Assembly: GCF_007744515.1 (NCBI RefSeq)
Contig: NZ_CP036268.1
Location: forward strand, 3,084,712 to 3,148,711
Length of the DNA stretch: 64,000 nucleotides
Source: Stratiformator vulcanicus
GTDB lineage: Bacteria; Planctomycetota; Planctomycetia; Planctomycetales; Planctomycetaceae
Direction of reading: 5' to 3'
The position numbers and the translations under genes were made by a program. Position 1 is the first letter of the stretch. Every line of letters begins with the position of its first letter. The notes beneath the pieces were generated by a model. It ran no database searches, had not been told where the DNA came from, and was given only the letters and a program-made list of their open reading frames with translations. Of this stretch, positions 32,918 to 62,219 are shown in pieces.

Positions 32918-33196
32918 AGGCCGCATTTCTCCCTTATCGATTCGTGCCCGCTTTGTGCCGCAGGCTTCGCAAAGAGCCGAAATCGCGGTTGCGGTCTGCG
33001 AGCGAATGTTCTATCGATCCGGTTCCCGACCTCCGTTCGCGAGGTCTCACGTCCCCAACTGCCCAATCACTCCGCGACCAACTCAATAAAAATAGTCCGT
33101 CACCGACGATTGCACGATGCATTGTGGTGAATGCACGGACCCGTCAGCCGCCCGATTCCGGGAGCACCGCTCCCAGCCGACAACCAGGATCAGATT

Positions 33197-43942: not shown

Positions 43943-44819
43943 GGCGATCTCGCGGATCTCCCGGCTGGAAATTCGGGCCCGTCACATCGTTGAAGGTATC
44001 TTATCCGGTATGCACCGCAGCCCGTACTTCGGGCAATCGGTCGAGTTCGTACAGCACCGCGAATACGTCGCCGGCGATGAAGTTCGCAACATCGATTGGA
44101 AAGTCTGGTCGAAGACCGACAAGTACTACGTCAAGCTGTACGAAGAAGATACCAACCTTCGGACGACGATCGTGCTCGACGTGAGCGAGTCGATGGAGTT
44201 TGGACGCGGCCCGCTCAACAAGCTCGACTACGCATCCACGGTCGCGGCGGCGTTGTCCCTGTTGCTCCTGAAGCAGCAGGACTCCGTCGGCATGATTACG
44301 TTCGACGAAGCCGTGCGCGGTCGGGCTCCGCAGCGGAGTAAACAGTCTCACCTGCTGCAACTGCTCGACACGCTGGGCAAGCAGTCCGCCTCACAGAAGA
44401 CCGATTTCTACAGCATCCTGACGCAGGTCGCCGAAGAGCAGACACGCAAGGGTATGATCATTTTGATCTCCGACCTGCTGGCTGATCGTGAGGGCTTGCT
44501 GCGCGGCTTGAGCATGTTGAGGGCCCGCGGGCACGACGTGCTCGTGTTTCAGATTCTCGATGACGAAGAGCTCGACTTCGGTTTTACCGGCACGACCAAA
44601 TTTGAAGGTCTGGAGGAAACGGGCGAGCTGATCTGCGACCCGCGGTCATTAAGAGACGGCTACCTCAACGCGATGGAAACCTATCTCGAAGAACTGCGGC
44701 GTTTCTGTGCCCGCAATCTGGTCGACTTTCAAACAATTCGCACCAGCGACCACCTCGACGCCGCATTGCTGCATTATATGAACCGCCGGATCGGCATGAA
44801 GATGCCTGCCCGCGGTTAG
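43908..44819 (+). CDS. DUF58 family protein (VWA-like)
   Basis: A 303-residue protein with the DUF58 signature [20 protein letters not shown] and [20 protein letters not shown], and a MIDAS-type DVSES motif. [20 protein letters not shown] and [20 protein letters not shown] continue the VWA fold. It is the usual direct partner of MoxR. No membrane segments, unlike some family members. It overlaps the moxR gene by 35 bases and is followed after 183 bases by the BatA-like gene. Confidence 0.93.
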
Positions 44820-45002
44820 TCGTCGCTGCTGACGCTTGAGAGCGGCAACAAGTACTTCCGGCGGTAAGTAAGCCCGATAACAAAGAGCATTGAAACTGAA
44901 GAGGAAGGGTGGCGGATCGATAATGGAATCGGCGAATGCCGGTCGGCACTGATGCGTCGACGATAAATCGGCTTTCCGCGTTCCACGTTCCGCTTTAATT
45001 AC

Positions 45003-47330: not shown

Positions 47331-49930
47331 GCACGTTCGCTGTAATGAATTTGGTGCCTCCCTCGGACTGGCTGCTGCTGGCGCAGTCGGAAACGGCCAT
47401 CCGGCTGATCGAATGGAGCCTGCCGGAGACCCCGCTGGGCTGGACGCTGCTCGTCGGCGGCGCGGCTTTGATGATCGCGTTCACCGTCTGGATGTATCTG
47501 CGCGACACCGTCGAGCATCCGCCGTGGGTGACGTTCATTCTGACCACTCTGCGTCTGGCGGTGATCGTCGGACTGCTGTTGGTATTACTCAACCCGCAAG
47601 AGCGGGTGCAACGCGTCGTGACCCGGCCGTCGCGAATGGCGATCTTGGTCGATACCTCGTTGTCAATGGCCGACCCGCAGAATGCCCCGCCGACGACGCC
47701 GGACGAATCGTGGGACCCACAGTCGCGAGCCCAAGCCGCACAAGCGGCGCTGCGTGACAGCGGCGTGTTGGACGAGCTCCGTAAGCTGCACAACATCTCG
47801 CTCTTCACTTTCGACGGGCAACTGGTCGAACAAGCCGTGTTCCCCCAAGACTCGGTACTGACCGGCGACAGCGAAGACTCGGATGAAGGCGACGACGAAA
47901 GCGAGCCCGAGGCTCAACCGTCAGCCGACGAATCGTCATCGCCGAATCAGCTCGATCCTAAGACGTTCAAATGGAATGAGGTTTTGCAGCCGGTCGGCCG
48001 TGAAACTCGCCTTGGCGAAGCGCTGGCCGAATTAATCCGCACGCAGGGAGGCAACACGCTCGCCGGAGTCGCGGTCTTTTCGGATGGTGGCTTGAATGCG
48101 GGGGTCGGTGAAGACGCCGCGATCGCCGCCGCGAGTCGGTCGGAGAAGCCGATTCGTGTCGCGACAGTCGGACTGGGCGACGTGACCGAGCCCGCAAATT
48201 TGATGCTCACGCAGGTCCGGGCGCCGTCCGATGTGCGTTACACCGTCGGTCGCGAGAAGCAGGACCCATTCGATATTACCGCCTACCTCCAGGCCACAGG
48301 CATGGAAGGCAAACAGGCGGTCGTGAAGTTGCTCAGGCACCCGGCGGACACCGAAGAGAGCACCGCAGCCGAGATCGATAGCGTCCCGCTCCGACTTCCC
48401 GAAGATGGCAGCGCCGTCGAAGTTCGGTTCACCGAGGAACCCGACACAGCCGGGCGATTTCGATACGTCGTCCGGGTCGAGCCGCCGGCGGGAATCCGCG
48501 ATTACCGCGACGATGACAACGAGAAAGACCTCGCAATCAATTTCGTGAGTCGGAACACCTCGGTGCTGATCATCGCGGGCGGACCGATGCGCGACTATCG
48601 CTTCAGTCGGAACATGCTGCATCGCACGCCAACGTTCGACGTTGACGTCTGGCTGCAAACGGTCAGCCCGTCCGAGGTATCGATGGTCAGTCAGGATTCG
48701 TCCGATCTGCTGACGGAATTCCCGCGTCAGTTTCCGCTGCGACCGATTTCCGATCGACTGCCGGAGACAACCGATTCTCCGAAGACATACGATGTCGTCA
48801 TTGCGTTCGATCCCGATTGGACGGAACTGGCCCCCGAAGATTTGGAGCATCTCTCCGACTGGGTTCGGCGACAACGCGGAGGCTTGATCCTCGTCGCCGG
48901 CGATATCAACACGCCGACCGTGGCCGATGATGATCCGGCACTGGAGCCGGTTCGCGATCTCTACCCGGTCGTGCTGTCGCGGCGCATCTTGCTCGACCCG
49001 GCATCGCTGGCCGCGGAGCAGCCCTGGCCCATCGGTTTGACCGATGCCGGTCGGCAATCGGGCTACCTGCAGATCGCCGAATCGGCCGATGAAACATCGC
49101 AGTTCTGGAACGCGTTCCCCGGCTTCTACCGGGTCTATCCGACGCGCAAGCCGAAGGACCTCGCGACCGTTCAAGCCGTCTTTACCGACCCGTCGGCACA
49201 GTCGGACGGGATTCCGGTGTTGTTTGCGACACAGCAATTCGGTGGCGGACAGGTCCTCTATATCGGCAGCCCCGAAGTGTGGCGGACGAGGGCGTACGAA
49301 GAGGAATACTTCAACCGGTTCTGGGTCAAAGCCGTCAACGAAGTCGGTCGCGGTCGGTTGCAGCAGGGAGACGGCCGCGCGGTCATATTGATGGATCGCA
49401 CCGACTTCGTGATCGGTGAGACGGTTCGCGTCCGGGTGCAGGCCAACGATGAATCGGGCCGACCGCTCACAACCGGATCACTGCCAATGACGGTTCTCAA
49501 CCCGGCCGGGCGTTCGGTGTTTCCCGAAGGGGCGGAATTGCTGCCTGACCCGGTCAACATCGGCCAATTCTCCGGTACATTCCGGGCCGCCGTGCCCGGA
49601 GGCTATGAAATCAGCGTGGAACTGCCGGGAGCGGAAACATCCGAGTCCCTTTCGACGAACATCGACGTCGCGGTGCCGCAACTGGAGCGGATGAATCCAC
49701 GCCAGAACCGCACTTTGCTTACCCAGATTGCTGAAGAAACATCGGGCGAGTATCTGACCGTCGAGCAGGTTCAGACGCGGCTGCCCGAGATATTCTCAAC
49801 CTCTGCGGCCGAGGCGACCCGCATCGACGAAGACCTTCGCACACTGTGGGACCGTATGTGGCTGCTCTACGCGGTCCTCGGTTGTTTGTCCGCGGAATGG
49901 CTGATGCGGAAACTTTTGAAGCTGGCGTAG
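47327..49930 (+). CDS. Membrane VWA protein with glutamine amidotransferase-like domain
   Basis: An 867-residue protein. Two or three N-terminal membrane helices (around residues 44-60 and 72-90) precede a VWA domain with MIDAS MAILVDTSLSM, an acidic insert (SEDSDEGDDESEPEAQ), and FSDGGLNAGVGEDAAIAAAS. A glutamine amidotransferase-like region follows (VLIIAGGPMRDYRFSRNMLH, LILVAGDINTPTVADDDPAL, QFGGGQVLYIGSPEVWR), without an obvious catalytic Cys, then a beta-rich part and a C-terminal helix (MWLLYAVLGCLSAEWLMRKL). This arrangement is typical of planctomycete Bat-like clusters. It overlaps the previous gene and lies 166 bases before the next. Confidence 0.85.
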   Translation: MSTFAVMNLVPPSDWLLLAQSETAIRLIEWSLPETPLGWTLLVGGAALMIAFTVWMYLRDTVEHPPWVTFILTTLRLAVIVGLLLVLLNPQERVQRVVTRPSRMAILVDTSLSMADPQNAPPTTPDESWDPQSRAQAAQAALRDSGVLDELRKLHNISLFTFDGQLVEQAVFPQDSVLTGDSEDSDEGDDESEPEAQPSADESSSPNQLDPKTFKWNEVLQPVGRETRLGEALAELIRTQGGNTLAGVAVFSDGGLNAGVGEDAAIAAASRSEKPIRVATVGLGDVTEPANLMLTQVRAPSDVRYTVGREKQDPFDITAYLQATGMEGKQAVVKLLRHPADTEESTAAEIDSVPLRLPEDGSAVEVRFTEEPDTAGRFRYVVRVEPPAGIRDYRDDDNEKDLAINFVSRNTSVLIIAGGPMRDYRFSRNMLHRTPTFDVDVWLQTVSPSEVSMVSQDSSDLLTEFPRQFPLRPISDRLPETTDSPKTYDVVIAFDPDWTELAPEDLEHLSDWVRRQRGGLILVAGDINTPTVADDDPALEPVRDLYPVVLSRRILLDPASLAAEQPWPIGLTDAGRQSGYLQIAESADETSQFWNAFPGFYRVYPTRKPKDLATVQAVFTDPSAQSDGIPVLFATQQFGGGQVLYIGSPEVWRTRAYEEEYFNRFWVKAVNEVGRGRLQQGDGRAVILMDRTDFVIGETVRVRVQANDESGRPLTTGSLPMTVLNPAGRSVFPEGAELLPDPVNIGQFSGTFRAAVPGGYEISVELPGAETSESLSTNIDVAVPQLERMNPRQNRTLLTQIAEETSGEYLTVEQVQTRLPEIFSTSAAEATRIDEDLRTLWDRMWLLYAVLGCLSAEWLMRKLLKLA

Positions 49931-50096
49931 CGTCTTAACTGACACGAACGAGCGACAAGAATGGTGATCGACTAAGAATGTCTTCGACAGATATAAGCCC
50001 GGGGCACCGGTCGCCGGGAATTTCATGTCCCGCCCGATCCCGTGCGTCTTGCGTTAGGATTATGACTGACGTTTGGAAAGTAATTTGAGCGAATCG

Positions 50097-52622
50097 ATGG
50101 CTGATCCGGTACGTAGCGACACGTTCGACAAATTGCGGCAGGTCCTCGTCGGCCTGCGGAGGCGCATTCGTCGCTACGTGCTGATTGAAGGCATTTCGCT
50201 CACGGTCTGCGTGCTCGGCACATTGTTCTGGGTCAGCCTGTTGCTGGAATGGGGCTACTTTCGGCTCAGTAACTTCGAGCCCCCGATCGCGTTGCGTGCG
50301 ATTCTCATTATCGGCGGCATCGCCCTGACGGTCGGCACGGCTGGCGTGTGGGTGATCTCGCGACTGCTGCGAAACATGCAACTGCGTTCGCTCGCAATGG
50401 TGCTCGAGCGGCGATTCCCGCAACTGGACGACCGCCTCATCCTTGCCGTCGAAACTTCTGAATCGCCGGACGAAGCGACGACGCGAATGAACCGCATTCT
50501 GACCGACCGCGCGATCGGCGAGGTCGTCGATTTGCTGCCGACGCTTCGCATCGGCGACGTCTTCGACGCCCTGCCTTTACGTCGCGCGGCGCTTGCTGCG
50601 TTAGTCCTCATCGCATCGATCGCCGTCTTCGGAGCCACCAACGCCGATGCGATGTCGACGTGGTGGAGGGCATTCGTCGGATTCGAAGACGCGTACCGGA
50701 TGCGTGCGACCCGGCTGACGACCTCGGCCGTCCTTCCGCCTGACGAACGTGTCGTACGACTGAATCCGGAGTCGCCGCTTAAACATCCCCGCGGCGGCGA
50801 TTTGTCGCTGCTCATCGAAGTTTCAGACACACCGCGTCCCGACGGTGCCGAGTGGGTGATCCCCGAACAGGTGACCGTTTACAGTCGGGACGGACGTGGG
50901 GCTTCGTCGGTGGTTCCGGCGGTGCAAGTGGGTGAAACGCAGTTTCGGGTCGTGATCGAAGAGGTCGTCGATGACCTACGGCTGTGGGTCTCGGGCAACG
51001 ATTACACCGACCGAGTTCCGTACGTCGTCCAAATTGTCGACGCGCCGCGGATGGACTCGGCCGCACTGGCCATTCTCTATCCCGCGTACATGCAGCGCAA
51101 TCGGCAGGACGAGGACGGCGGCCCGATCCCTGACGCGACGCCGCTGACCGGCCCGGCCGTTGAAATTCCCGTCGAGTCGTATTTCGATTTTGAAATCACA
51201 TTTAACAAACCGATGCTCAATGCCCGCGTGCGGTTCGGAGGAGACGAACTGACCATCGGCGACTTCCGCGACTCGACCGGCGACGCAGAGCGCTCTTTTC
51301 GCGCCGCTTACGTCGTCGAAGGCATCGAAGGTGAACCGCCGACGCGCACGTTGCTGGAAGAAAATTGGGCCCGCGGTCTGTGGGACGAAACACGAACGCG
51401 ATTGACATTGCCCCTGCTGGTCACCGATGCCGCTCGGGGCGTGATCTCCGAGCCGCCGGAAGGTCGGCCCGGTCCGGTCGGACAGCCGCTATTCGCCGTC
51501 CCGCCCGACGTGCTGATGCGATTATGGGTGGAAGATTTCGACGAGATTGCCACGGTCGAGCCGGTCCGAATCGAACTTCGTGCGATCCCGGACTTGCCGC
51601 CGGAGATTAATACCCGACCAACCGGAATCGGCGGACTCATCACACGAACGGCGGTGATCCCCGTGGCGGGACAGGTGCGCGACGACTTCGGAATTCGGGA
51701 TGCGCAGTTCGAGTATCAACTTCAAGCCAAGTCGGCGCCCGACGACGCGCCGCAAGCGGGCTGGATTCCGCGGACGCTGCGTCGACCTCCGAGCGGCCTG
51801 CCGACGGTGTTCGAGTTAGGTCGATCGGACGACGAAGAGTACGAGTGGCTCGACACGGCGCCGCTCGACCTGGAGTTAGGTGACGTCCTCTCGGTCGTCG
51901 TCATTGCCGAAGATGCAAACGATCTCATCGGTCCGCAGGTCACCCGCGGTGAAGTCTTTCAATTTCGCGTCGTCACGGCCGAAGAATTGCTCGGCGTCTT
52001 GTTCAATGCCGAACTCAATCAGCGCAAGACGTTCGAACAAGTGATCGAGGAAATTGAAGACGTCCGCACCGATCTGAGCGGCGCGATCGAGAACGCGACG
52101 AAGGTGTCGACGCTGCGTGAAAGCGGCGATCGCGACGAATTGAGAACCGCCGTGCTGGCGGTCCGACGTTCGGCCGACCGGGCATACGCGGAGCTGTCAC
52201 AGAATCGTCAATCGACGGCGACCATTGCCGACGAGTTCCGACAGATATTCCAGCAACTCGTTAACAATCGAATTCATACGGAAGCTCAACTCGAACGAAT
52301 CGACAGCCGAATTCTCGAACCGCTCGACATGCTGGTGGACAACTCGTTCCCGGCTGCGACCGATAGCGTCGCAGAGATCAGACGGGCTGATCGCGAGACC
52401 CGGCCGGTCGAGCCTTATCTCCGCCGATCGATCGATCAGGTGGAGGACATGCTGCGGACGATGCGTGAGGTGTTGGACGAAATGCAAAGCCTCGCCGATA
52501 TGCAGGAAGCGTTGCAGGAGTTGTCGTCGATCTACAAAGACTTGAGCGACGTCAAAGCGAAGACCAAGGAAGAGCAAAAACGTGATATCCTCAACAATCT
52601 CGGCGGCGGCTTGTTCGAATGA
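50097..52622 (+). CDS. Large membrane protein, DUF4175-like, with coiled-coil C-terminus
   Basis: An 841-residue protein. Two membrane helices near the N-terminus (VCVLGTLFWVSLLLEWGYF; ILIIGGIALTVGTAGVWVIS) are followed by a conserved segment, LRSLAMVLERRFPQLDDRLI, and a third helix (LAALVLIASIAVFGATNADA). A long periplasmic part with beta-rich repeats (VQIVDAPRMDSAALAILYPA, PPEINTRPTGIG, VRDDFGIRDAQFEYQLQ) ends in coiled coils (from about residue 650). Its layout recalls DUF4175 proteins of Bat-type clusters. Start uncertain: TTG 50085 sits 4 bases after GGAAAG, while ATG 50097 gives the better N-terminus. Confidence 0.75.
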   Translation: MADPVRSDTFDKLRQVLVGLRRRIRRYVLIEGISLTVCVLGTLFWVSLLLEWGYFRLSNFEPPIALRAILIIGGIALTVGTAGVWVISRLLRNMQLRSLAMVLERRFPQLDDRLILAVETSESPDEATTRMNRILTDRAIGEVVDLLPTLRIGDVFDALPLRRAALAALVLIASIAVFGATNADAMSTWWRAFVGFEDAYRMRATRLTTSAVLPPDERVVRLNPESPLKHPRGGDLSLLIEVSDTPRPDGAEWVIPEQVTVYSRDGRGASSVVPAVQVGETQFRVVIEEVVDDLRLWVSGNDYTDRVPYVVQIVDAPRMDSAALAILYPAYMQRNRQDEDGGPIPDATPLTGPAVEIPVESYFDFEITFNKPMLNARVRFGGDELTIGDFRDSTGDAERSFRAAYVVEGIEGEPPTRTLLEENWARGLWDETRTRLTLPLLVTDAARGVISEPPEGRPGPVGQPLFAVPPDVLMRLWVEDFDEIATVEPVRIELRAIPDLPPEINTRPTGIGGLITRTAVIPVAGQVRDDFGIRDAQFEYQLQAKSAPDDAPQAGWIPRTLRRPPSGLPTVFELGRSDDEEYEWLDTAPLDLELGDVLSVVVIAEDANDLIGPQVTRGEVFQFRVVTAEELLGVLFNAELNQRKTFEQVIEEIEDVRTDLSGAIENATKVSTLRESGDRDELRTAVLAVRRSADRAYAELSQNRQSTATIADEFRQIFQQLVNNRIHTEAQLERIDSRILEPLDMLVDNSFPAATDSVAEIRRADRETRPVEPYLRRSIDQVEDMLRTMREVLDEMQSLADMQEALQELSSIYKDLSDVKAKTKEEQKRDILNNLGGGLFE

Positions 52623-52658
52623 CCGGCGATTGCCACTTTCACTCGGGGAGTTCGAGTA

Positions 52659-54533
52659 ATGCGAATGATCGAATCGACGACAGACCGCAATTTTCTGCGG
52701 ACTCCGCTACGCCTGGCAATTGTCGCGGTCGTCGCTTGCTCGATGATCCCGTCGGTCGCGTCCGCACAGGACCTGACGGAAGCACTCGGCAATCGCAGCC
52801 TGCCCGATCGGGCCGAAGCGCTCCGCGTCCGCTTCAGTCGGCTCGAAGACACGTTCTTCAAACTGGCTCGCTATCTCGAAAAGACCGAGCCGGAAAAGGC
52901 GGAACTGCTGCTGCGTGCGCTTCGGCAGAGCAAGGAAGAACGAATCGAAGATCGCATGAAAGCGATCGTCACAATGCTCGGCGGCGGCGGGGCCGAAGTC
53001 CGGCAATACGGCGATGCCCTCGACGAGCAGGAAGCGGTTCTGGCCCGCCTGCAGGAATTGCTCAAGCTGCTTCGAAGCGAAGACATCCTGGCCGACAACC
53101 GCAAGGAACAAGAGCGCATCCGCGATCTGATCAAGAATACGCGAATCTTGATTGACCGGGAGAAAGTCCATCAAGCCGAAACGCAACGCGGCGGCGATCT
53201 GTCCGATGTGACGGAAGATCAGGAAAAGACGGCCGAGATGACCGGCAAACTCGTCGAGAAGATCGATCGCCAGGACGCCGAGAAATCGGGCGCCGCCGGT
53301 GAGAAAGGTGAGTCGGGGGAAGGGGAGAAAGGCGAGTCCGGGGAGAAAGGCGAGTCAGGCGAAGGCGAGAAGGGCGAGTCAGGAGAGAAAGGGGAGTCAG
53401 GCGAGAAAGGTGAGTCCGGCGAAGGCGAGTCGGGCGAGAAGGGTGAGTCCGGAGAAGGCGAGTCGGGCGAGAAGGGTGAGTCCGGAGAAGGTGAGTCGGG
53501 CGAGAAGGGTGAGTCCGGAGAAGGTGAGAAAGGCGAGTCAGGAGAGAAGAGCGAGTCGGGTGAAGGAGAGCCGGGCGAGAGTGGTGAATCAGGTGATAGC
53601 GGCGAATCAGGCGAGAGTGGTGAGTCCGGAGAGAGCGGGCAGTCCGGCCAGTCGGGTCAGAGCGGACAGTCAGGTCAGAGTGGCCAGTCAGGCGAGAGCG
53701 GTGAACAGAGTGACGAGAAAACACCCGGTCGCGATGAGATCGAAAAAGCCAAGCAGGAGATGGAGCGCGCGATCGAGGAGTTGAAGAAGAAAAACGCCGA
53801 AAACGCGACCGAAGCTCAGACCGAAGCGATCAATGAACTGATCAAGGCCAAGGAAAAGCTGGAAGAGATTCTCCGGCAACTTCGAGAAGAAGAGCGGGAA
53901 CTGCTGCTCCGCGCTTTGGAAGCTCGCTTCCAGAAGATGCTCCGGATGCAGGTCGAAGTCCGCGCCGAAACCGTTCGACTGGGAGCCATCGCGAGTGACG
54001 AATGGGGAGCGCGCGAGTTCGGGCAGTCGCGAGACGCGTCGAACAAAGAGCTCGAAATTGCCCTCGAAATTGACAAGGCGTTGGCATTGCTTCGCGAAGA
54101 CGGCTCGTCGGTGGCGTTCCCGGAAGCCGTGGCCCAATTGAAGGAAGACGTCCTGTTGATCGTGGGCTTCCTCGCGGAAAATAATGCCGGAGAGCTGACG
54201 GTCGCCGTCGAAGATGACGTGATCTTGGCCCTGAAAGAGATTTTGGAGGCTCTGCAGCGCGAGATGGAAAAACTTCGCGAACAACAGCAGCAGCAACAGC
54301 AAGGTCAACAGGGTCAACAACAGGACAAGGCGCTGGTCGACAAACTGGCGGAACTAAAAATGCTCCGTACGTTGCAAAAGCGGGTACAACGGCGGACCCG
54401 GACACTCTCGCGTCTGTTTGAGGGCGAGCAGGCTGCCAAGCCCGACGTCGTTGAACAGCTCCGCCAACTTTCCGGGCGACAACAGCGTATTCAAGAGGCA
54501 ACTTACGATCTCGCGACCGGTCGCACAGAGTGA
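52659..54533 (+). CDS. Secreted coiled-coil protein with GES/GEK low-complexity repeat
   Basis: A 624-residue protein with a signal peptide (cleavage near SVASAQDL). Residues 30-205 are charged helices ([40 protein letters not shown]). Residues about 213-350 are a collagen-like low-complexity tract of [17 protein letters not shown] and [10 protein letters not shown] units. The rest returns to coiled coil ([20 protein letters not shown]), a Gln-rich patch, and a conserved end [20 protein letters not shown]. It is one of a set of helical periplasmic proteins in the MoxR run. GGGAG lies upstream of the ATG; M3 at 52665 is an alternative. Confidence 0.8.
53298..53715. repeat. Low-complexity GES/GEK-coding tract
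   Basis: A stretch of 9-, 18- and 27-base units (GGTGAGTCCGGAGAA and variants) inside the coiled-coil protein gene. Its copy number is likely to vary between strains by slippage or recombination. Confidence 0.8.
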
Positions 54534-54615
54534 GACGCGAGACGATATACACAGGAAACATAGGTAGTCGCTGCGAACGGCCATCTCAGACAATCAAACG
54601 GCGGGAGTAACTCTG

Positions 54616-55707
54616 ATGCACTATTCATGCGAAGCGATTCCGAATCGATTTTTCGGTTTACTGCCCGCCGCCGCGATGGGGTTCGTGTTGGTCGTGACTT
54701 CTCTGAGCGGGCCGGCAACGGCCGCCGAGGAGAAATCCCATGGTGAGCGCGAGGAGATCGTCTCCGCCCCTTCACTTGATGAGGTTCGGTTGCGCGTCTT
54801 CAGTTGGCTCGCCGAGCACAGCAGCGCCGGGGCTCGCGAAAAGCAGGCGGCCGAATGGGCCACCTTTGAGGGGGATATCGAACCTCACGAACTGACCCGA
54901 CGCGTGATCGACACCTTTGCGAGTGCGTCGCCCGAAGTCGCCGAGTTCGTTTCGAAGTGCTCCGTGCTCAACCCACCGCAAATTGCTTTGGAAATCGACG
55001 AGCTTCCTAATTACGACTCCGAACCGTTTTATTCGGCGAACATCGCGGCCTTTTACGCGGGCTTTTTGGTCGATACGCGACGGTTCGACGAAGCCTTGTG
55101 GATTATCGAAGACATTGAGCGTGAGCATGTCGTCGATCCGGCGTCGTTGCTGTTTCACCAAGCCGTCTGTCAGCACCAACTCGTCGAGCGTGAGGCGGCC
55201 ATGCAGACGCTCAAGACATTGCTCGAAAACACCGAGCAGGTCCCGCCCAGCTATACGTCGATCGCCACGCTGATGAAATTCGATTTGGAAGGCTCAAAGC
55301 CCGACAGCCTGGGTGAAGTTTCGGGATTGATGCGTGACGTTGAGCGTCGTCTCGACCTGGGCCGCGGCGGTCAGCGTGTGCAGAAGAAGCACGATGTGAT
55401 CGTCTCAAAGCTCGACCAGATCATCGAGAAACTCGAACAGCAAATGGGTGGTGGTGGCGGAGGCGGCGGTGGCGGCGCCGGCCAGAACAATTCCAATCAG
55501 TCGAGCGGCCCGGCGAAGGACTCCACCGTGAAGGGGGCAGAGGGCGAAGGCAAAGTCGATACGAAAGAATCCAAAAGCGGCGAGTGGGGCAACCTGCCGG
55601 AACGCGACCGCGAACAAGCGAAGCAGGACACGCTCAAGCACCTTCCGGCGAGCTACTGGCGATTGTTTGAAGAGTTTTCCGTCCGAAGAGCTCGGAAGGA
55701 CCGTTAA
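54616..55707 (+). CDS. Secreted TPR-like protein with Gly-rich linker
   Basis: A 363-residue protein. The signal peptide (LLPAAAMGFVLVVTSLSGPA) is followed by a helical region with a TPR-like segment (YSANIAAFYAGFLVDTRRFD, EALWIIEDIEREHVVDPASL, LLFHQAVCQHQLVEREAAMQ). A run of ten or more Gly follows (MGGGGGGGGGGAGQNN), then a Ser/Gly/Lys linker and the conserved end WGNLPERDREQAKQDTLKHL and PASYWRLFEEFSVRRARKDR. The ending is characteristic of this gene position in planctomycete MoxR clusters. GGGAG precedes the ATG. Probable scaffold; no enzymatic motif. Confidence 0.78.
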   Translation: MHYSCEAIPNRFFGLLPAAAMGFVLVVTSLSGPATAAEEKSHGEREEIVSAPSLDEVRLRVFSWLAEHSSAGAREKQAAEWATFEGDIEPHELTRRVIDTFASASPEVAEFVSKCSVLNPPQIALEIDELPNYDSEPFYSANIAAFYAGFLVDTRRFDEALWIIEDIEREHVVDPASLLFHQAVCQHQLVEREAAMQTLKTLLENTEQVPPSYTSIATLMKFDLEGSKPDSLGEVSGLMRDVERRLDLGRGGQRVQKKHDVIVSKLDQIIEKLEQQMGGGGGGGGGGAGQNNSNQSSGPAKDSTVKGAEGEGKVDTKESKSGEWGNLPERDREQAKQDTLKHLPASYWRLFEEFSVRRARKDR

Positions 55708-55772
55708 AGTGTTAAAACGGAGAACTTCGTCGACGACACCGATGCACGATTTTGACGCTCGAGACTGACTCC

Positions 55773-56963
55773 ATGGCACACTCCGCAGCAATCATTGCTC
55801 TCGCCGGTCTACTCGCCGCCGGAGGTCCCGAGGCCGACGTGGCGACGTTGGACGGCCAAACCTACTCCGGAACGGTCGCCGCTCTCAACGGCACGACGCT
55901 CACGCTCGAAACGTCGGACGGTTCCGAGTCGATCGCCACCAAGCAGATCCTGGAACTCACACCGAAGTCGGCTACGGATGGCGAAGCTTCGGCCGATTCC
56001 GTAGCGGTGCGTCTGCGTGACGGATCGCAGTTCGGTTGCAGCCGTGTCGTCGTCGCGAATCGAGAGGCCACACTGACGTGTCCCGATCTCGGTGACATTA
56101 AAGTACCGAGCGGAGCCATCGAGTCCCTGCGATTCGGAAAGCTGGACGCTCAAGTTCGCAGGTCGTGGGAAGAGATTCTCGAAAGGAAACAGAAGTCTGA
56201 TGTCGTCGTCACGCGAAAATCGGACATCCTCGACCGGGTCGAAGGGACGCTTGACACAATTAGTGACGAGGCGATCGGGTTTGTACCGCAGGGAATTGAC
56301 CGCACACTTAAAATTGCACGTTCGAATGCGGTTCTCTTCGCGGTGATCTTCGCCGAGACCAACGAGCGGTCGGCGAAGCCGCTGTGTGATTTGAAGATGA
56401 CAAGTGGCGATCGGGTCCGTCTGAAAAAGCTGGCCACAACCGAAGACGGGAACTTAACCGGCACGCTGGTGGGTGGAGGAAACGTGACGGTTGCGTGGAG
56501 TTCCGTTCGCGCTATCGACTACAGCCTCGGAAAAGTCGTATCGCTGTCCTCACTGAAGCCACGTGATATCGAACACACGCCCTATTTTGACGTCGATTGG
56601 CCGCACCGCGTCGATCGCAACTACGACGGAGAGACGATCAGTATCGACCGCAAGACGTACTCGCGCGGGCTCGTCATTCACTCAAAAACGTCGTTGCAAT
56701 ACCGTATCGATCGCGACTTTCGGAAATTCCGCGCCGTGATGGGCATCGAAGATACGGTTCCCAGCGGGCTCGGAGACGTCGACGTTGTCTTCACCGGCGA
56801 CGGCAAAGAATTAATGAAGCGGAAGGTGACCGGTTCGGACAAGCCGATCGACGTGGAATTAGATCTTAAGGGTGTCCGCGACTTTGAGATTCTGGTCGAT
56901 TTCGGTGGCGATCTCGACATCTCCGACCACCTGGCGCTCGGCGACGCAAGGCTCATCAAATGA
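55773..56963 (+). CDS. NPCBM/NEW2 domain protein
   Basis: A 396-residue protein starting MAHSAAIIALAGLLAAGGPE, with a weak signal peptide. The N-terminal half repeats small beta modules of the type ATLDGQTYSGTVAALNGTTL and LRDGSQFGCSRVVVANREAT, which look like tandem SH3/Sm-like strands. The C-terminal 140 residues form an NPCBM domain: FDVDWPHRVDRNYDGETISI, YSRGLVIHSKTSLQYRIDRD, KFRAVMGIEDTVPSGLGDVD and FEILVDFGGDLDISDHLALG. NPCBM binds carbohydrates, so a role at the cell surface is likely. The stop overlaps the next start by 4 bases. Confidence 0.85.
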   Translation: MAHSAAIIALAGLLAAGGPEADVATLDGQTYSGTVAALNGTTLTLETSDGSESIATKQILELTPKSATDGEASADSVAVRLRDGSQFGCSRVVVANREATLTCPDLGDIKVPSGAIESLRFGKLDAQVRRSWEEILERKQKSDVVVTRKSDILDRVEGTLDTISDEAIGFVPQGIDRTLKIARSNAVLFAVIFAETNERSAKPLCDLKMTSGDRVRLKKLATTEDGNLTGTLVGGGNVTVAWSSVRAIDYSLGKVVSLSSLKPRDIEHTPYFDVDWPHRVDRNYDGETISIDRKTYSRGLVIHSKTSLQYRIDRDFRKFRAVMGIEDTVPSGLGDVDVVFTGDGKELMKRKVTGSDKPIDVELDLKGVRDFEILVDFGGDLDISDHLALGDARLIK

Positions 56964-58768
56964 AAATGACCAGCAGAATAGTCCGCTCCGCACAAACCGC
57001 GTCGGGCACTCCGGCTGTAATGTCGCGAACCGATGATCGGTTAACCGCTTTCAGAAATTTATTTCTGCTGAGCTTGCCCGCCATCTTGGTATTGCTCGGC
57101 GGGAAAACGGCGAGCGCGGACGGCGTTGACGTCGACGAGTCGGTGCTCGCCGCCCAGAACGAGCGAATTGAAGTAATTAATGGTGCGGCCCCGTCGGTCG
57201 TGGCAGTCTTTGGCGCAGCCGGTGGCGGCGGAGGCTCGGGAGTGCTGATTTCGAAGGACGGTTTCGCTCTCACCAACTTTCACGTGACCGAGCCGTGCGG
57301 CGACTTCATGAAGTGTGGTCTTAATGACGGAAAACTCTACGACGCCGTGATCGTCGGCATCGACCCGACAGGCGATGTGGCATTGATCAAGCTGCTCGGT
57401 CGCGATGACTTCCCATTTTCTCCGCTCGGCGATAGCGATGCGTTATCGGTCGGGGATTCCGTCTACGCAATGGGGAACCCGTTCCTGTTGGCAACCGATT
57501 TCAGCCCGACGGTCACATTCGGCATCGTCAGCGGATTGCATCGTTATCAATACCCCGAAGGTTCCGGCAAGAACCTCTTGGAGTACACCGATTGCATTCA
57601 GGTCGATGCTTCGATCAACCCCGGCAACTCCGGGGGGCCGCTATTTAATGCGAAGGGTGAGGTCGTAGGCATTAACGGCCGCATCATGTTCGAAAAGCGT
57701 GTCCGTATTAATTCGGGTGTGGGCTATGCAATCTCAATTAATCAAATCAAGAACTTCATGGGCCACCTGAAATCAGGCCGCGTTGTCGACCACGCGACGC
57801 TCGGCGCGACCGTCGCGACCGACTGGGACGGAACGATTCGTTTCCAGCAGGTGTCGATCGATTCGGAAGCCTACCGGCGAGGGATCCGCGAAGGAGACGA
57901 ACTCGTGTCATTTGCGGGCCGGCCGATTCGCAGTGTGAACCAGTTTAAGAATGTCCTCGGCATCTTCCCCAAAGGATGGAAGTTGCCTTTGACGTTCCGC
58001 TCCGGGGATCAGACCGCATCGGTGCAGGTCCGCTTGCAACCGCTCCATCAGGAATCCGAACTGAAGTTCGACAAGCCGGAGCTTCCCGATGGCCACCCGG
58101 CGAAAGCGAAGCAGCCTAAGCCGCCGGAAGAGTATGCCGACCTATTGGAGAAGAAGGACGGGTTTTCTAACTATTACTTCAACCGCCAAGCTCAGAAGCG
58201 ACTGCTTTCAGGCTTAAAGGAATGGGGGGACTTCGGCGGGGCAGGAGCCTCTTGGGGAATTTCGGGCAGCCTGCAAAACGGTTCGTCCTATCGGATAACG
58301 CTCACGCCCAAAGTTGCCGGTCTTGACGTCGCGGAACGTGCGGCATTTCTGCAACCACTGACAGCCGCAGATCGTTTAATAGACGAGCCGGTCGGTACAG
58401 GCGGATTGCTTGCAGCACTGCACCATTTGAAATTACTGCTGACCGAAGGCTCCGCCGGTTTTGCCGACTTCTACTATCTGGGAACCGAACCGCTCGACGG
58501 GACCGGGCCGATGATCGATATCTTGATGGCTGAGCGAGCCGGCACGCAGACGCGGTTTCTGTTCAGCGTGGAAACGGGGCGATTCGTTGGGATCGATTTT
58601 CGGTTGGACGAGTTTTCCGACGAGTGTGAGATTCGATTCGCAGAACCGAAGCAGCTTTCCAGTCGAAAGTTTCCCCAAAGCTTTAAAGCCCGATCGGGTG
58701 GCGAGACGTTCGCGACGTTCGCCGTCGAAGGCCTGTCCGTCCGGGCGAAATCGGGAGAGAACGAATGA
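56960..58768 (+). CDS. HtrA-like trypsin-family serine protease with PDZ domain
   Basis: A 602-residue periplasmic protease. A signal anchor (FRNLFLLSLPAILVLLGGKT) is followed by a complete S1C catalytic triad: His108 in FALTNFHVTEP, Asp139 in DPTGDVALIKL and Ser224 in NPGNSGGP. A PDZ domain follows (about residues 275-365, GIREGDELVSFAGRPIRSVN). The last 230 residues (YADLLEKKDGFSNYYFNRQA and onward) form a domain I do not recognise. It should degrade or process envelope proteins. It overlaps genes on both sides by 4 bases, so it is the active member of a three-gene protease-fold set. Confidence 0.92.
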   Translation: MKMTSRIVRSAQTASGTPAVMSRTDDRLTAFRNLFLLSLPAILVLLGGKTASADGVDVDESVLAAQNERIEVINGAAPSVVAVFGAAGGGGGSGVLISKDGFALTNFHVTEPCGDFMKCGLNDGKLYDAVIVGIDPTGDVALIKLLGRDDFPFSPLGDSDALSVGDSVYAMGNPFLLATDFSPTVTFGIVSGLHRYQYPEGSGKNLLEYTDCIQVDASINPGNSGGPLFNAKGEVVGINGRIMFEKRVRINSGVGYAISINQIKNFMGHLKSGRVVDHATLGATVATDWDGTIRFQQVSIDSEAYRRGIREGDELVSFAGRPIRSVNQFKNVLGIFPKGWKLPLTFRSGDQTASVQVRLQPLHQESELKFDKPELPDGHPAKAKQPKPPEEYADLLEKKDGFSNYYFNRQAQKRLLSGLKEWGDFGGAGASWGISGSLQNGSSYRITLTPKVAGLDVAERAAFLQPLTAADRLIDEPVGTGGLLAALHHLKLLLTEGSAGFADFYYLGTEPLDGTGPMIDILMAERAGTQTRFLFSVETGRFVGIDFRLDEFSDECEIRFAEPKQLSSRKFPQSFKARSGGETFATFAVEGLSVRAKSGENE

Positions 58769-59811
58769 CGGGTTCGACGCAGTGGATCAAACGAATTAAA
58801 CAACTCGCAGCATTGACTGCGAGTGTGGCGATGATGTTCGCCGTGGCTCCGGCTTCAGCGATCGGAGCAGAAGGTCTGCCGGCGGCATTGAAGAGGACCG
58901 TGAAAGTCTTCGGGGCCGGCGGACTGCGGGGGCTGGAATCCTATTCCACCGGCTTTCTCGTTTCGCCCGAAGGTCATATCGTCACGATTTGGAATCACGT
59001 TCTCGACGTCGAACCGATCACCGTTGTGCTCGACGATGGCCGAAAATATGAGGCCGACATCGTCGGCACCGAGCCCAAGCTCGACCTGGCCGTCATTAAA
59101 TTGCGAGCTGACTCGGAACGATTCGACCACTTCGACCTTGAGAACGTACCTTCGGCGGGCGTGGGTGATCGTATCTTCGCCCTCAGCAATATGTACAAAG
59201 TCGCCGTCGGTGACGAACCAGTCTCTGTCATGTCGGGCGTGGTTTCGGCCGTCACGTCGCTCGAGGGACGTCGCGGCGGTTTTGAAATCCCGTTCGAAGG
59301 CGATGTCTTCCTGTTCGATGCCATTACTAATAATCCCGGCGCCGGTGGCGGAATCGTCATCACCCGCAGCGGCAAGCCGTTGGGCATGATCGGACGGGAG
59401 ATCCGGAATGCCGACAGCAATACCTGGGTGAATTACGCCATCCCGCTGCGCGACCTTAAGACTCCGATCGAACAAATTCTCTCGGGCACTTACGAACGAA
59501 TTGAGACGCGGCCGGACGACGTAGCTGGCGATCAACTGGAGCCGGCCGACTTCGGCTTGGTCATGTTGCCAGACGTCGTCTATCGAACTCCGGCCTATGT
59601 CGGATCGGTCATCCCGGACTCACTCGTCGCAACCGCCGGCATCGAGCGCGGCGACTTGGTCGTCTTTATCGGTGACGAGCTCGTTCAATCGATCCGCGAT
59701 TTAAAGTCAGCCTTGGCTGCCGTTGAAGAAAGCGATGACGTTCGACTGATCGTCCGCCGCGGCGACGAGTTGATTACAGTCGAAGTGACTGCCCCCGAAA
59801 AATCGGAATAG
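58765..59811 (+). CDS. Degenerate HtrA paralogue (trypsin fold + PDZ), nucleophile lost
   Basis: A 348-residue protein of the same fold as its upstream neighbour. His78 (TIWNHVLD) and Asp107 (LDLAVIKL) are kept, but the NPGNSGGP nucleophile loop reads NPGAGGGI, with Gly194 where the catalytic Ser should be. The C-terminal PDZ (about residues 255-345) has SLVATAGIERGDLVVFIGDE. Without the Ser it cannot act as a serine protease, so a binding or regulatory role is inferred. It begins inside the end of the active protease gene (4-base overlap). Confidence 0.85.
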   Translation: MTGSTQWIKRIKQLAALTASVAMMFAVAPASAIGAEGLPAALKRTVKVFGAGGLRGLESYSTGFLVSPEGHIVTIWNHVLDVEPITVVLDDGRKYEADIVGTEPKLDLAVIKLRADSERFDHFDLENVPSAGVGDRIFALSNMYKVAVGDEPVSVMSGVVSAVTSLEGRRGGFEIPFEGDVFLFDAITNNPGAGGGIVITRSGKPLGMIGREIRNADSNTWVNYAIPLRDLKTPIEQILSGTYERIETRPDDVAGDQLEPADFGLVMLPDVVYRTPAYVGSVIPDSLVATAGIERGDLVVFIGDELVQSIRDLKSALAAVEESDDVRLIVRRGDELITVEVTAPEKSE

Positions 59812-59898
59812 GTTTGTCGCGGTCGGTGGCGAACACCCCGGCCGACTCGACGAGCTGCTCTTCCAATTAGATTTACTCGCAACAAGCTGGTTAGCAAT

Positions 59899-61932
59899 AT
59901 GTGGGATTATCGTCGCGTCTTAATTCTCCCCGCCCTTGCGGCTACGCTGATCGCAATTGCGGGAAGCTCAGACGCCGAGGATGTCGTCGAACTGGAAGAG
60001 CAGGCATTTAAGTCGGCTGTGGCAGCCGTCGCCCCCTCGCTGGTTCGAATTCGCACCGTCGGTGGTCGAGACGTCGTGGGCGGACAGGTCGCCGGCAGTG
60101 GCCCCACGACGGGAATTGTCGTTTCTGATGACGGATACATCGTCACCAGCACATTTAATTTTGCCGCCGAACCGACATCCATTCTCGTAGAACTTGTCGA
60201 CGGCCGCCAATTGGCGGCCAAAAAGATCGCCGACGATAAATCACGAATGCTGACGCTGCTAAAGGTCGATGCGGAAAACCTGATTCCCGCCGAGCCGGCA
60301 GAGATATCAGAGGTCAAAGTCGGCCAGTGGGCCATCGGCGTCGGCAGAGCTTACAGAGGCAGTCGTCCTAACTTGGCGATCGGAATCATCAGTGCGAAAG
60401 ATCGCATCTACGGCAAAGCCGTGCAGACCGACGCGAAGGTGTCACCGGTCAACTATGGCGGTCCGCTCATTGATATAAGCGGACGCGTCGTGGGAATTCT
60501 GGTCCCGCTGTCGATGCAGGGGAAGGGGACGACGGCCGGCGTGGAGTATTATGACTCCGGTATCGGGTTCGCCGTGCCGTTCGAAGACTTCCTCAGCACG
60601 ACGGATCGACTCAAAGCGGGGGAAACGCTACGGCCCGGACTGCTCGGTATTTCGTTCAAATCGAAGAATGAGCTGACCGGCGAGCCGCTGATCGGGATGG
60701 TCCGGGTCGATTCCCCGGCCGAACAGATCGGCCTCGCCACCGAAGACACGCTGATTTCAATTAACGGCAAACCGGTTCAGCGAATCGCAGACGTGAAACA
60801 GGCGATTGGTCCACTCTACGCGGGCGATACGATCGAGGTGGGATTCCGCCGCGGCGACGAAACGCTGAGCGGGTCGGCCGAATTGGTCGCCGAATTAAAG
60901 CCCTACGCATCGGGGTTTCTGGGCATTCTCCCCGCCCGCCCCGATGGTTCCGAGAACGCAGCAGCGGTTACGGACGACGAGACGACTGGCATGAGAGTGC
61001 GTTACGTCTTTAAAGGCAGCCCTGCCGAAGAGGCGGGACTAAGTGTCGGCGATGTCATCACGGCCGTAAAATTTAAAAACGCCGAAGCAAGTGGAGAAGA
61101 ATCGAATGACGCGCCGGATTGGTCGCCGGTCACCAGTTCGGAAGAGCTCTTGGGTGTGATCCGAAATCTTCGGCCCGGCCAGGAAATCGAGTTGGAATAC
61201 GAGAAAGGCGATAGCCCTTCAACGGTCACGGTGGCGCTCGACTCAGTCCCCACTGAAATCGTTGGAAGTCTGCCGATCGCCGCGATTGTCCCACCCGGCG
61301 AAGACGTGGAAGTCGATACCGGCAGGCTCAGCGAAACGTGGGAAGACGGCGAACGAAGCTATTGGGCCTACGTCCCAGAATCATACAACCCGCAAGCGGC
61401 GTACGGGCTGATCGTCTGGCTGCACCCCGCCGGCGATACGATGGAAGCCGAAGTGTCTCGCAAGTGGAAGCCCTTCTGCGATTTGCACGGAGTCTGTTTG
61501 CTCGGCCCGAAAGCGGCTGATATCGCCGGCTGGAAGGGCGAAGAAATCGAATACGTGACGGAACTGACCCGCCGCTTCCGCGAACGGTATTCGATTGATC
61601 CTGTTCGCGTCGCCGTCGTCGGACGCGGTCGCGGAGGGGTGATGGCCTTCCAAGCCCTTTCCAAAGAGCGAGATTTGTATACCGGTGCGGCGATCATCGA
61701 TTCACCGATCGCCGGAGACGTAATTCAGAACGATCCGAATTACCGGACGCAATTCTTATTCGCCTTTGACGAATCAATCCGCATCCTCCCTCTCATCAAG
61801 CGTTCTGCACAGTTGTTGAACGGCCTGAAATTTCCCGTCGCTTCCATCCCCTACACGAGCGAGGATGGTCGCCTTCCGCGAACCTCAATCGAGGCATTGT
61901 TCCGCTGGTTTGACGCGCTCGACCGCATTTGA
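59899..61932 (+). CDS. Pseudoprotease with two PDZ domains and a degenerate alpha/beta-hydrolase domain
   Basis: A 677-residue secreted protein. Residues 30-240 have the trypsin/HtrA layout but all three catalytic positions are changed: His to Phe86 (VTSTFNFA), Asp to Met117 (RMLTLLKV) and Ser to Tyr186 (VNYGGPL). Two PDZ domains follow (about 245-340, with EQIGLATEDTLISINGKPVQ, and 350-450, with SPAEEAGLSVGDVITAVKFK). From residue 480 an alpha/beta-hydrolase fold is visible (YWAYVPESYNPQAAYGLIVW, LHPAGDTMEAEVSRKWKPFC), but the nucleophile elbow reads GRGRG (575-579) instead of GxSxG, so its Ser is Gly577. The protein thus joins two dead enzyme folds. Confidence 0.85.
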   Translation: MWDYRRVLILPALAATLIAIAGSSDAEDVVELEEQAFKSAVAAVAPSLVRIRTVGGRDVVGGQVAGSGPTTGIVVSDDGYIVTSTFNFAAEPTSILVELVDGRQLAAKKIADDKSRMLTLLKVDAENLIPAEPAEISEVKVGQWAIGVGRAYRGSRPNLAIGIISAKDRIYGKAVQTDAKVSPVNYGGPLIDISGRVVGILVPLSMQGKGTTAGVEYYDSGIGFAVPFEDFLSTTDRLKAGETLRPGLLGISFKSKNELTGEPLIGMVRVDSPAEQIGLATEDTLISINGKPVQRIADVKQAIGPLYAGDTIEVGFRRGDETLSGSAELVAELKPYASGFLGILPARPDGSENAAAVTDDETTGMRVRYVFKGSPAEEAGLSVGDVITAVKFKNAEASGEESNDAPDWSPVTSSEELLGVIRNLRPGQEIELEYEKGDSPSTVTVALDSVPTEIVGSLPIAAIVPPGEDVEVDTGRLSETWEDGERSYWAYVPESYNPQAAYGLIVWLHPAGDTMEAEVSRKWKPFCDLHGVCLLGPKAADIAGWKGEEIEYVTELTRRFRERYSIDPVRVAVVGRGRGGVMAFQALSKERDLYTGAAIIDSPIAGDVIQNDPNYRTQFLFAFDESIRILPLIKRSAQLLNGLKFPVASIPYTSEDGRLPRTSIEALFRWFDALDRI

Positions 61933-62219
61933 ATTTCCCCCGCGCGATCGATTTGACGTCTGACGGTGTGATTGCATCATACCCGCTTCCGACGAGCCTG
62001 AACCGATCAGCCAAGACGCCCGCCACGCCCGCCAGCCCTGCCTCAATGCTTCTTCTGAGGGTTTGTTGACGTTTGGCAACATTGGAACGGCTCAGATGCC
62101 GACTCGGCCTGCCCGTCACACCTTGTTTCGTGCTACAGTTCAACAAAGGTACGTTCAGGATTTCATTCGCATCAGCCGGCTTCGCTCGGCCGTTTCCCCT
62201 CTAAATTTCGGCCACCGCT

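What the first reader, a model, noticed from the sequence alone, without database searches (positions are those of the whole stretch)
59899..61932. Double pseudoenzyme: inactive trypsin fold, two PDZ domains and inactive alpha/beta-hydrolase
All three triad positions in the trypsin-like part are altered (Phe86, Met117, Tyr186) and the hydrolase nucleophile elbow is GRGRG. Two different dead enzyme folds joined by PDZ domains is an unusual architecture, suggesting a periplasmic binding scaffold that evolved from enzymes.
Basis: partly seen in the sequence, partly recalled or inferred. Interest (0 to 1): 0.72.

Follow-up and report, generated by a model that had tools for sequence, protein, structure and literature searches.

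The report
Dead protease partnering an active one
This bacterial protein looks like a protease joined to an esterase, with both active sites destroyed, and it belongs to an ancient set of three protease relatives, one apparently working and two dead, that are kept together in many members of a bacterial phylum and may work as one machine.

Summary
Window 59899-61932 (HTR3 here) codes for a protein with a DegP/HtrA-like trypsin fold (His/Asp/Ser replaced by Phe86/Met117/Tyr186, oxyanion Gly also lost), two PDZ domains and an esterase-like alpha/beta-hydrolase whose nucleophile is Gly577. AlphaFold2 and Foldseek support both folds. The halves differ: Tyr186 is invariant in 66 of 66 aligned homologues, whereas the hydrolase nucleophile drifts (Ser in 7 of 107).

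The larger finding is the set. HTR3 follows two HtrA paralogues: HTR1 (56960-58768; triad intact in 86 of 86) and HTR2 (58765-59811; Ser lost in 92 of 92). In 294 genomes of the phylum, high-scoring HTR1 and HTR3 occur in the same 47 and HTR2 in 46 of those, even where the genes are scattered. Of 17 more distant genomes opened, 13 hold related trios. Natural fusions join HTR1-HTR2, and HTR2-type with HTR3-type. HTR3, unlike HTR2, keeps three residues through which one DegP subunit activates its neighbour (Ser165, Arg169, Gln176; 66 of 66 each).

Most likely the three form a mixed HtrA assembly in which HTR3 is an allosteric subunit. Shared function is strongly supported; the mixed trimer is inferred.

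The parts
59899..61932 (+). HTR3: the protein of the finding, 677 aa
   Evidence: ORF; homologues over its full length
59899..59976 (+). N-terminal hydrophobic segment, likely signal peptide (boundary approximate)
   Evidence: hydrophobicity scan; signal-peptide reading is inference
59986..60618 (+). trypsin-like (HtrA S1C) domain without catalytic residues, about residues 30-240
   Evidence: Trypsin_2 1.5e-18; AF2 and Foldseek
60154..60156 (+). Phe86 at the catalytic His position
   Evidence: joint alignment; F 53, W 7, Y 4, E 1, L 1 of 66; DegP pairwise alignment prefers Asn87
60247..60249 (+). Met117 at the catalytic Asp position
   Evidence: never Asp in 66; joint alignment
60391..60393 (+). 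Ser165, equivalent of DegP Ser183 (activation cluster)
   Evidence: 66 of 66; mapping by alignment to DegP
60403..60405 (+). Arg169, equivalent of DegP Arg187 / DegS Arg178 in loop L3
   Evidence: 66 of 66; mapping; role in PMC11642142 (passages)
60424..60426 (+). Gln176, equivalent of DegP Gln200 (activation cluster)
   Evidence: 66 of 66; mapping
60454..60456 (+). Tyr186 at the catalytic Ser position
   Evidence: 66 of 66; joint alignment
60637..60873 (+). PDZ domain 1 (residues 247-325)
   Evidence: PDZ_2 3.5e-21
60916..61236 (+). PDZ domain 2 (about residues 340-446, boundaries approximate)
   Evidence: further PDZ stretches; AF2 secondary structure
61321..61929 (+). alpha/beta-hydrolase (esterase-like) domain, residues 475-677
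   Evidence: NCBIfam 1.3e-12, below cut-off; AF2 and Foldseek
61627..61629 (+). Gly577 at the hydrolase nucleophile position (GRGRG)
58765..59811 (+). HTR2: HtrA paralogue without catalytic Ser (NPGAGGG); the window copy still has Asp107 and a His78 one residue off the His column
   Evidence: Trypsin_2 4.3e-17
56960..58768 (+). HTR1: HtrA paralogue with intact His108-Asp139-Ser224; overlaps HTR2 by 4 bases
   Evidence: Trypsin_2 6.9e-33; triad intact in 86 of 86 loci
55752..56963 (+). NPCBM-domain protein, conserved upstream neighbour
   Evidence: NPCBM 1.6e-26; same-strand neighbour in 31 of 40 regions
42872..55707 (+). rest of the gene run: MoxR-like ATPase, DUF58-like (both labels recalled), two_anch/BatA-like protein, VWA-like protein (recalled), three proteins without a clear family
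   Evidence: TIGR02226 6.7e-14 for 45003-47330; ORFs; neighbours from 45003 on

Best explanation
HTR3 is a non-catalytic subunit of a three-component HtrA system. HTR1 supplies the only intact protease active site; HTR2 and HTR3 are pseudoproteases that sit with it, most likely as a mixed HtrA trimer (or an assembly of such trimers) in the cell envelope. HTR3 no longer cuts, but it keeps the residues (Ser165, Arg169, Gln176) that in DegP and DegS link one subunit's loop L3 to the neighbour's loop LD and so order the neighbour's active site. It could thus switch HTR1 on in trans, while its PDZ domains and, in this lineage, its hydrolase-derived C-terminal domain act as sensing or targeting modules. 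Shown here by sequence: loss of both catalytic sites, the folds (predicted), the invariant residues, the three-gene co-occurrence, the fused ORFs. Inferred: physical complex, trimer, trans-activation, envelope location, role of the hydrolase domain.
For: Set behaviour: profile searches of the same 294 genomes find HTR3 in 47 (306-441 bits, next best 249), HTR1 in the same 47 (370-511 bits, next 332), HTR2 in 46 of them (249-430 bits, next 168); sets compared. In G143, one contig, the three genes lie at three distant places, yet all are kept. Six same-class genomes without an HTR3-level match also lack HTR1- and HTR2-level matches. Each paralogue is one clade (100/100), and trios from more distant planctomycetes give an HTR1 sister group, an HTR3 sister group and a third degenerate group. 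Fusions: one ORF holds HTR1+HTR2 in L093, L095, L096 and L100, with no second hydrophobic leader seen at the junction; HTR2-type and HTR3-type domains share an ORF in L208 and L209. Residues: S165, R169, Q176 in 66 of 66; in a joint alignment these columns are kept in HTR1 (17-18 of 18), HTR3 (18 of 18) and other active-type HtrAs (11-12 of 12) but not in HTR2 (S 8, R 3, Q 0 of 18), so the fold tolerates their loss. The same S/R/Q pattern is in 10 of 10 distant HTR3-type proteins whose nucleophile position is T, S, V, V, T, V, V, V, V, A. Precedents, seen as passages: inactive HTRA1 subunits activate an assembly-defective one in mixed trimers (PMC11252331); MamO activates MamE non-catalytically (PMC4794232); the degenerate domain of plant Deg7 is involved in trimerisation (PMC3473262).
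Against: HTR3's loop L3 is about six residues shorter than DegP's between the Arg and the Gln (R-x6-Q against R-x12-Q), so the DegP contact may not form as such. Ser165 and Gln176 lie in conserved core motifs and could be kept for folding in this branch. The fourth DegP cluster residue, Thr176, maps to Asn158, which is not a conserved column. HTR2 does not keep the cluster, although it has an Arg a few residues on in 34 of 39, so it may not play the same part. The R274-type interface Arg of human HTRA1 (mapping recalled) is not uniformly kept in any of the three. Co-occurrence can also come from a shared pathway without contact, and part of it from shared descent. One distant HTR3-type protein (L194) keeps Ser and Asp, though not the His, and most of the other distant HTR3-type proteins keep the Asp.
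Confidence: 0.5

Rival explanations
1. HTR3 works in the same pathway but not in the same complex: a stand-alone periplasmic binder or chaperone that captures misfolded or signal proteins through PDZ and hydrolase modules and hands them to HTR1.
For: PDZ and hydrolase domains are kept while catalysis is lost; co-occurrence fits a pathway equally well; the genes are unlinked in some genomes. MamO-MamE contact could not be detected by its authors (PMC4794232, passage).
Against: Natural fusions between members of the trio and invariant inter-subunit activation residues are not predicted.
Confidence: 0.33
2. HTR3 has gained a new activity, for example ligand or metal binding at the Tyr186/Tyr218 pocket, or still hydrolyses something through another site.
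For: Tyr186, Tyr218 and Gly221 are invariant and lie in the old active-site segments of the sequence; MamO shows such repurposing.
Against: No His or Cys column in the protease-PDZ part reaches half of the rows, so neither MamO's di-His site nor a His-dependent catalytic site is apparent. Distant HTR3-type proteins do not share Tyr186.
Confidence: 0.1
3. The hydrolase domain is an active esterase in some lineages, and the window copy is a loss.
For: Five of 107 sequences keep a Ser-Asp-His set by alignment (L102, L106, L114, L136, L138).
Against: 100 of 107 lack the nucleophile Ser; 14 of 57 homologues show no hydrolase domain, some because of contig ends.
Confidence: 0.05
4. Decaying duplicate genes without function.
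For: Loss of catalytic residues.
Against: No inner stop in the listed matches except one TAG in G262, invariant columns, retention in many families of the phylum.
Confidence: 0.01

Closest known systems
MamE/MamO of magnetotactic bacteria (PMC4794232, abstract and passages seen)
   Same: Active HtrA and pseudo-HtrA in one gene cluster; the pseudoprotease has a degenerate triad and a non-glycine residue at position 193; it activates the partner without catalysis.
   Different: MamO has a di-His metal site and a TauE domain, neither seen here; two components, magnetosome-specific; here three components in many families of a phylum, and HTR3 has PDZ and hydrolase domains.
Plant Deg7 (passages of PMC3473262 and PMC4754418)
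   Same: One active and one degenerate HtrA protease domain act together; the degenerate one is involved in trimerisation; the HTR1-HTR2 fusions are built alike.
   Different: Single polypeptide and one degenerate partner; here usually separate genes and two different pseudoproteases.
Deg5/Deg8 of chloroplasts (passages of PMC4754418)
   Same: Two HtrA paralogues form a hetero-oligomer (about 1:1); as recombinant proteins only Deg8 was active.
   Different: Two components, not three; Deg5 is described as a Deg protease (crystals were of its S266A variant, PMC3640471 passage), not as a triad-less subunit.
DegP/DegQ (closest solved structures)
   Same: Trypsin-like domain plus two PDZ domains, Foldseek best E 4.9e-30.
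   Different: Triad and oxyanion Gly lost, L3 shortened, extra hydrolase domain.
Esterase/feruloyl esterase/PHB depolymerase group of alpha/beta-hydrolases
   Same: Fold, profile match 1.3e-12 but below cut-off.
   Different: Nucleophile Ser replaced by Gly in the window copy.

Membership tests
HtrA/Deg (S1C) proteases | trypsin-like domain followed by PDZ | tested here: met
HtrA/Deg (S1C) proteases | His-Asp-Ser triad and GNSGG oxyanion motif | tested here: not met
   F86, M117, Y186, V184; so a pseudoprotease homologue, not a protease
HtrA/Deg (S1C) proteases | activation-cluster residues Ser183, Arg187, Gln200 of DegP | tested here: met
   S165, R169, Q176, 66 of 66
HtrA/Deg (S1C) proteases | activation-cluster residue Thr176 of DegP | tested here: not met
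   maps to Asn158 (alignment), not among conserved columns
HtrA/Deg (S1C) proteases | trimeric assembly | not testable with these tools
   single-chain prediction only, coordinates not provided
MamO-type pseudoprotease | encoded with an active-type HtrA partner | tested here: met
   HTR1, H, D and S columns invariant in 38 rows
MamO-type pseudoprotease | non-glycine at position 193 | tested here: met
   V184; never Gly in 66
MamO-type pseudoprotease | surface di-His metal site | tested here: not met
   no His column in the protease part reaches half of the rows
Deg7-type fused active plus degenerate HtrA | both domains in one polypeptide | tested here: not met
   separate ORFs in the window; one ORF in L093, L095, L096, L100
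alpha/beta-hydrolase esterases | fold | tested here: met
   predicted model, Foldseek
alpha/beta-hydrolase esterases | nucleophile Ser in GxSxG | tested here: not met
   Gly577

The most novel reading that the evidence does not exclude
Planctomycetes have an obligate three-subunit HtrA protease: one catalytic subunit and two different pseudoprotease subunits, found in the window's class and outside it within the phylum, with activity governed by asymmetric contacts (HTR3 gives its L3 Arg but has lost the NPF receiving motif of loop LD; HTR1 keeps both). This would be a heteromeric counterpart of the homotrimeric HtrA, comparable to systems with dedicated catalytic and regulatory subunits.
Probability: 0.42. 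Interest if true: 0.82.

Novelty: new variant of a known kind. Interest (0 to 1): 0.7.

Why it matters
HtrA proteases are mostly described as homotrimers in which each subunit both activates and is activated by a neighbour. A system in which evolution split these roles among three genes, keeping the activating residues in one and discarding its catalytic ones, would let the direction of activation be tested subunit by subunit. It also suggests that many planctomycetes use a compound envelope protease tied to a MoxR/Bat-like gene run of unknown function. Annotating all three genes as serine proteases would be wrong for two of them.

Tried and rejected
Alternative catalytic site in HTR3: looked for conserved His or Cys; only His509 and Cys527, both in the hydrolase, reach half of the rows. 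Human HTRA1 R274-type interface residue as evidence for trimer type: inconclusive, the position varies in all three families and the numbering is recalled. C-terminal LDR[IL] as a PDZ ligand: 4th-last Leu in 102 and 3rd-last Asp in 99 of 107, but another pseudo-hydrolase of this genome has WMDR in mid-protein, so it is probably structural; kept only as an idea. Promoter/terminator scan of 56900-62300: counts not above shuffles.

Papers: library searches for planctomycete pseudo-HtrAs, HtrA trios or mixed HtrAs; none of the listed titles or abstract starts describes the trio. Lists were capped (at most 20 shown), and most subscription papers are not held, so this does not prove absence from print. 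PMC2605481 (passages) reports catalytically inactive serine-protease homologues in general; PMC6411480 (passages) reports many PDZ proteins in planctomycetes.

Those 80 loci were picked with patterns that contain NYGG or YDSGIGFA, so the Tyr count that includes them (117 of 117) is biased; the 66 of 66 come from similarity searches only. One search removed 3 identical loci of 120; some genomes may still be present twice. In one search one of 66 collected references (L088, same length and score as L059, same genome) was left out and the window added. Of the 47 HTR3 genomes, 5 (G057, G103, G156, G171, G200) were not opened for residues. Profile searches scored only the best 7 or 8 first-look candidates per genome. 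For the hydrolase alignment A5, 100 of 107 collected sequences were used.

Mended on checking: the first alignment script read minus-strand loci on the wrong strand and was replaced. Some labels are off by one; searches give the right columns. The His position was first set by hand; one search confirms Phe86 in joint alignments, while pairs the His with Asn87. In HTR2, His78 (12 of 39) lies one residue off the His column.

Full report
What is there. The ORF at 59899-61932 codes for 677 residues. Pfam places a trypsin-like HtrA domain and PDZ domains on it; NCBIfam adds a PHB-depolymerase/esterase-like C-terminal match, E 1.3e-12 but below the curated cut-off. AlphaFold2, run with a 66-row alignment, gives mean pLDDT 91.2 and pTM 0.86, and Foldseek puts DegP and DegQ first (E 4.9e-30). 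The last 207 residues alone give pLDDT 95.7 and match esterases. In a joint alignment with HTR1 and 12 other HtrAs the triad columns hold Phe86, Met117 and Tyr186, and the oxyanion Gly column Val184; a DegP pairwise alignment sets the His against Asn87. The hydrolase nucleophile is Gly577.

How conserved the loss is. In 66 rows collected by similarity alone, residue 186 is Tyr in all, residue 86 is F (53), W (7), Y (4), E or L, residue 87 is N (50) and in two cases His, and residue 117 is never Asp. The hydrolase behaves otherwise: the nucleophile column in 107 sequences holds G 35, A 18, E 17, D 15, S 7, T 6, Q 4, K 3, R 1, F 1, and five of the seven Ser sequences also show Asp and His. Of 57 proteins examined, 43 have a recognisable hydrolase domain and 14 do not, some of these at contig ends. 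The pseudo-trypsin is thus the constrained part; that the hydrolase is a later addition is inference.

The neighbours. Directly upstream lie two more HtrA-type genes: HTR1 (56960-58768) with an intact triad and HTR2 (58765-59811) with NPGAGGG in place of NPGNSGG. HTR1 and HTR2 overlap by four bases. Before them come an NPCBM protein and a run that starts with MoxR-like and DUF58-like genes (labels recalled) and a two_anch/BatA-like gene. In 40 fetched regions the order NPCBM-HTR1-HTR2-HTR3 was read in 27; 13 showed shorter or other strings, partly from contig ends or fused ORFs. In 120 loci, 89 hold all three HtrAs, 6 hold HTR2 and HTR3, 25 hold HTR3 alone, partly because of contig ends.

Triads of the trio. 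After removal of 3 identical loci, HTR1 has H, D and S in 86 of 86, HTR2 has no Ser in 92 of 92, and HTR3 has Tyr in 117 of 117 (the last figure is biased by the pattern scan). In 38 HTR1 rows the triad columns are invariant. HTR2 is more mixed: 12 of 39 have a His one residue off the column and 13 of 39 the Asp, none the Ser.

Co-occurrence. The same 294 genomes of the phylum were searched with a profile of each paralogue (the best 7 or 8 candidates per genome were scored). HTR3: 47 genomes at 306-441 bits, next best 249. HTR1: 47 genomes at 370-511 bits, next best 332. HTR2: 46 genomes at 249-430 bits, next best 168. The HTR1 and HTR3 sets are identical; HTR2 misses only G226, where the HTR3 frame runs into the contig end. 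Of the 47, 17 are of the window's family, 3 of another family of its class, and 27 lie outside the class. HTR1 and HTR3 lie within 6 kb in 43 of the 47. In G143, a single contig, the three lie far apart, so linkage alone does not explain the pattern. Six same-class genomes without an HTR3-level match (G025, G029, G030, G033, G034, G038) have only generic HtrA matches to HTR1 (at most 190 bits against at least 484 in six carriers) and to HTR2 (best E 2.4e-15); to HTR3 three of them have none at 1e-20 and three only generic ones (best 1.4e-27). These six were chosen, not all non-carriers (G036 was not tested). The Fisher value printed ignores shared descent and is not used.

Deeper origin. Of 25 genomes with HTR3-profile scores of 200-249 bits, 17 were opened (count). 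Thirteen show a trio of neighbouring HtrA domains, one with H-D-S (in G047 its Ser lies beyond a contig end) and two degenerate (in G105 the third is weak); G197 and G289 are cut by contig ends; G050 and G145 show only an ordinary HtrA. A tree of 95 sequences makes HTR1, HTR2 and HTR3 one clade each (100/100). The distant trios fall into a group with HTR1 (100/93), a group with HTR3 (99/95), and a third degenerate group whose tie to HTR2 is not resolved. In distant HTR3-type proteins the Ser position is T, S, V, E, A or M, the His is gone, and many keep the Asp, so Tyr is the state of one large clade, not of all.

Fusions. Four of the 40 regions carry HTR1 and HTR2 in a single ORF (L093, L095, L096, L100), with no hydrophobic leader seen at the junction. 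In two distant genomes (L208, L209) HTR2-type and HTR3-type domains share an ORF. L210 has a further candidate with a weak first domain. Fusions of this kind suggest, but do not prove, contact.

Mechanism. In DegS and DegP, Arg178/Arg187 in loop L3 of one subunit, with Ser183 and Gln200 in DegP, takes part in an activation cluster with loop LD of the neighbour (PMC11642142, passages); R302A in human HtrA1 abolishes activity without loss of the trimer (PMC5666011, passages). The DegP alignment puts Ser183, Arg187 and Gln200 on HTR3 Ser165, Arg169 and Gln176, each 66 of 66. In the joint alignment the three columns are kept in HTR1 (17, 18, 18 of 18), HTR3 (18 each of 18) and other HtrAs (11, 12, 12 of 12), but not in HTR2 (8, 3, 0 of 18). 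HTR1 also keeps the receiving NPF motif (38, 38 and 37 of 38), whereas HTR3 has mostly R or K there (60 of 66) followed by T or A (46 of 66). Ten of ten distant HTR3-type proteins keep the S/R/Q pattern with the same short loop. A mixed trimer in which HTR3 helps activate HTR1 fits this, and has an engineered precedent (PMC11252331, passages). Against it: the short L3, the structural role that Ser and Gln may have, the loss of the cluster in HTR2, and the lack of any modelled or measured interface.

Standing relative to known systems. The nearest are MamE/MamO, plant Deg7 with its degenerate domain involved in trimerisation and the Deg5/Deg8 hetero-oligomer. The trio differs in having two distinct pseudoproteases, its spread within a phylum, and the hydrolase extension. 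I rate it a new variant of a known kind. Whether it exists outside the phylum was not tested.

Noticed in passing
G000:C1:3950996-3951616 (locus L205): A second degenerate esterase-like domain in the same genome (819-aa frame, nucleophile Gly in GHGMG), on the minus strand, near a frame that reads like a protein kinase (kinase label recalled).
   Followed up: partly
window 61909-61929: HTR3 proteins with the hydrolase end almost exactly at LDR[IL]: 4th-last Leu 102, 3rd-last Asp 99, 2nd-last Arg 93 of 107; probably structural, possibly a PDZ ligand.
   Followed up: partly
window 33131-36556: Protein of 1141 aa that looks like an Omp85/BamA homologue (recalled, no family search) with a long low-complexity stretch between the N-terminal part and the barrel part.
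   Followed up: no
window 52659-54533: Protein of the conserved run with a long collagen-like GEKGESGE repeat (Pfam Collagen 2.3e-10).
   Followed up: no
L194:6597-7763: A distant HTR3-type protein that keeps Ser (NYGNSGG) and Asp but has Phe at the His position.
   Followed up: no
L102, L106, L114, L136, L138: HTR3 homologues whose hydrolase domain keeps Ser-Asp-His by alignment.
   Followed up: no
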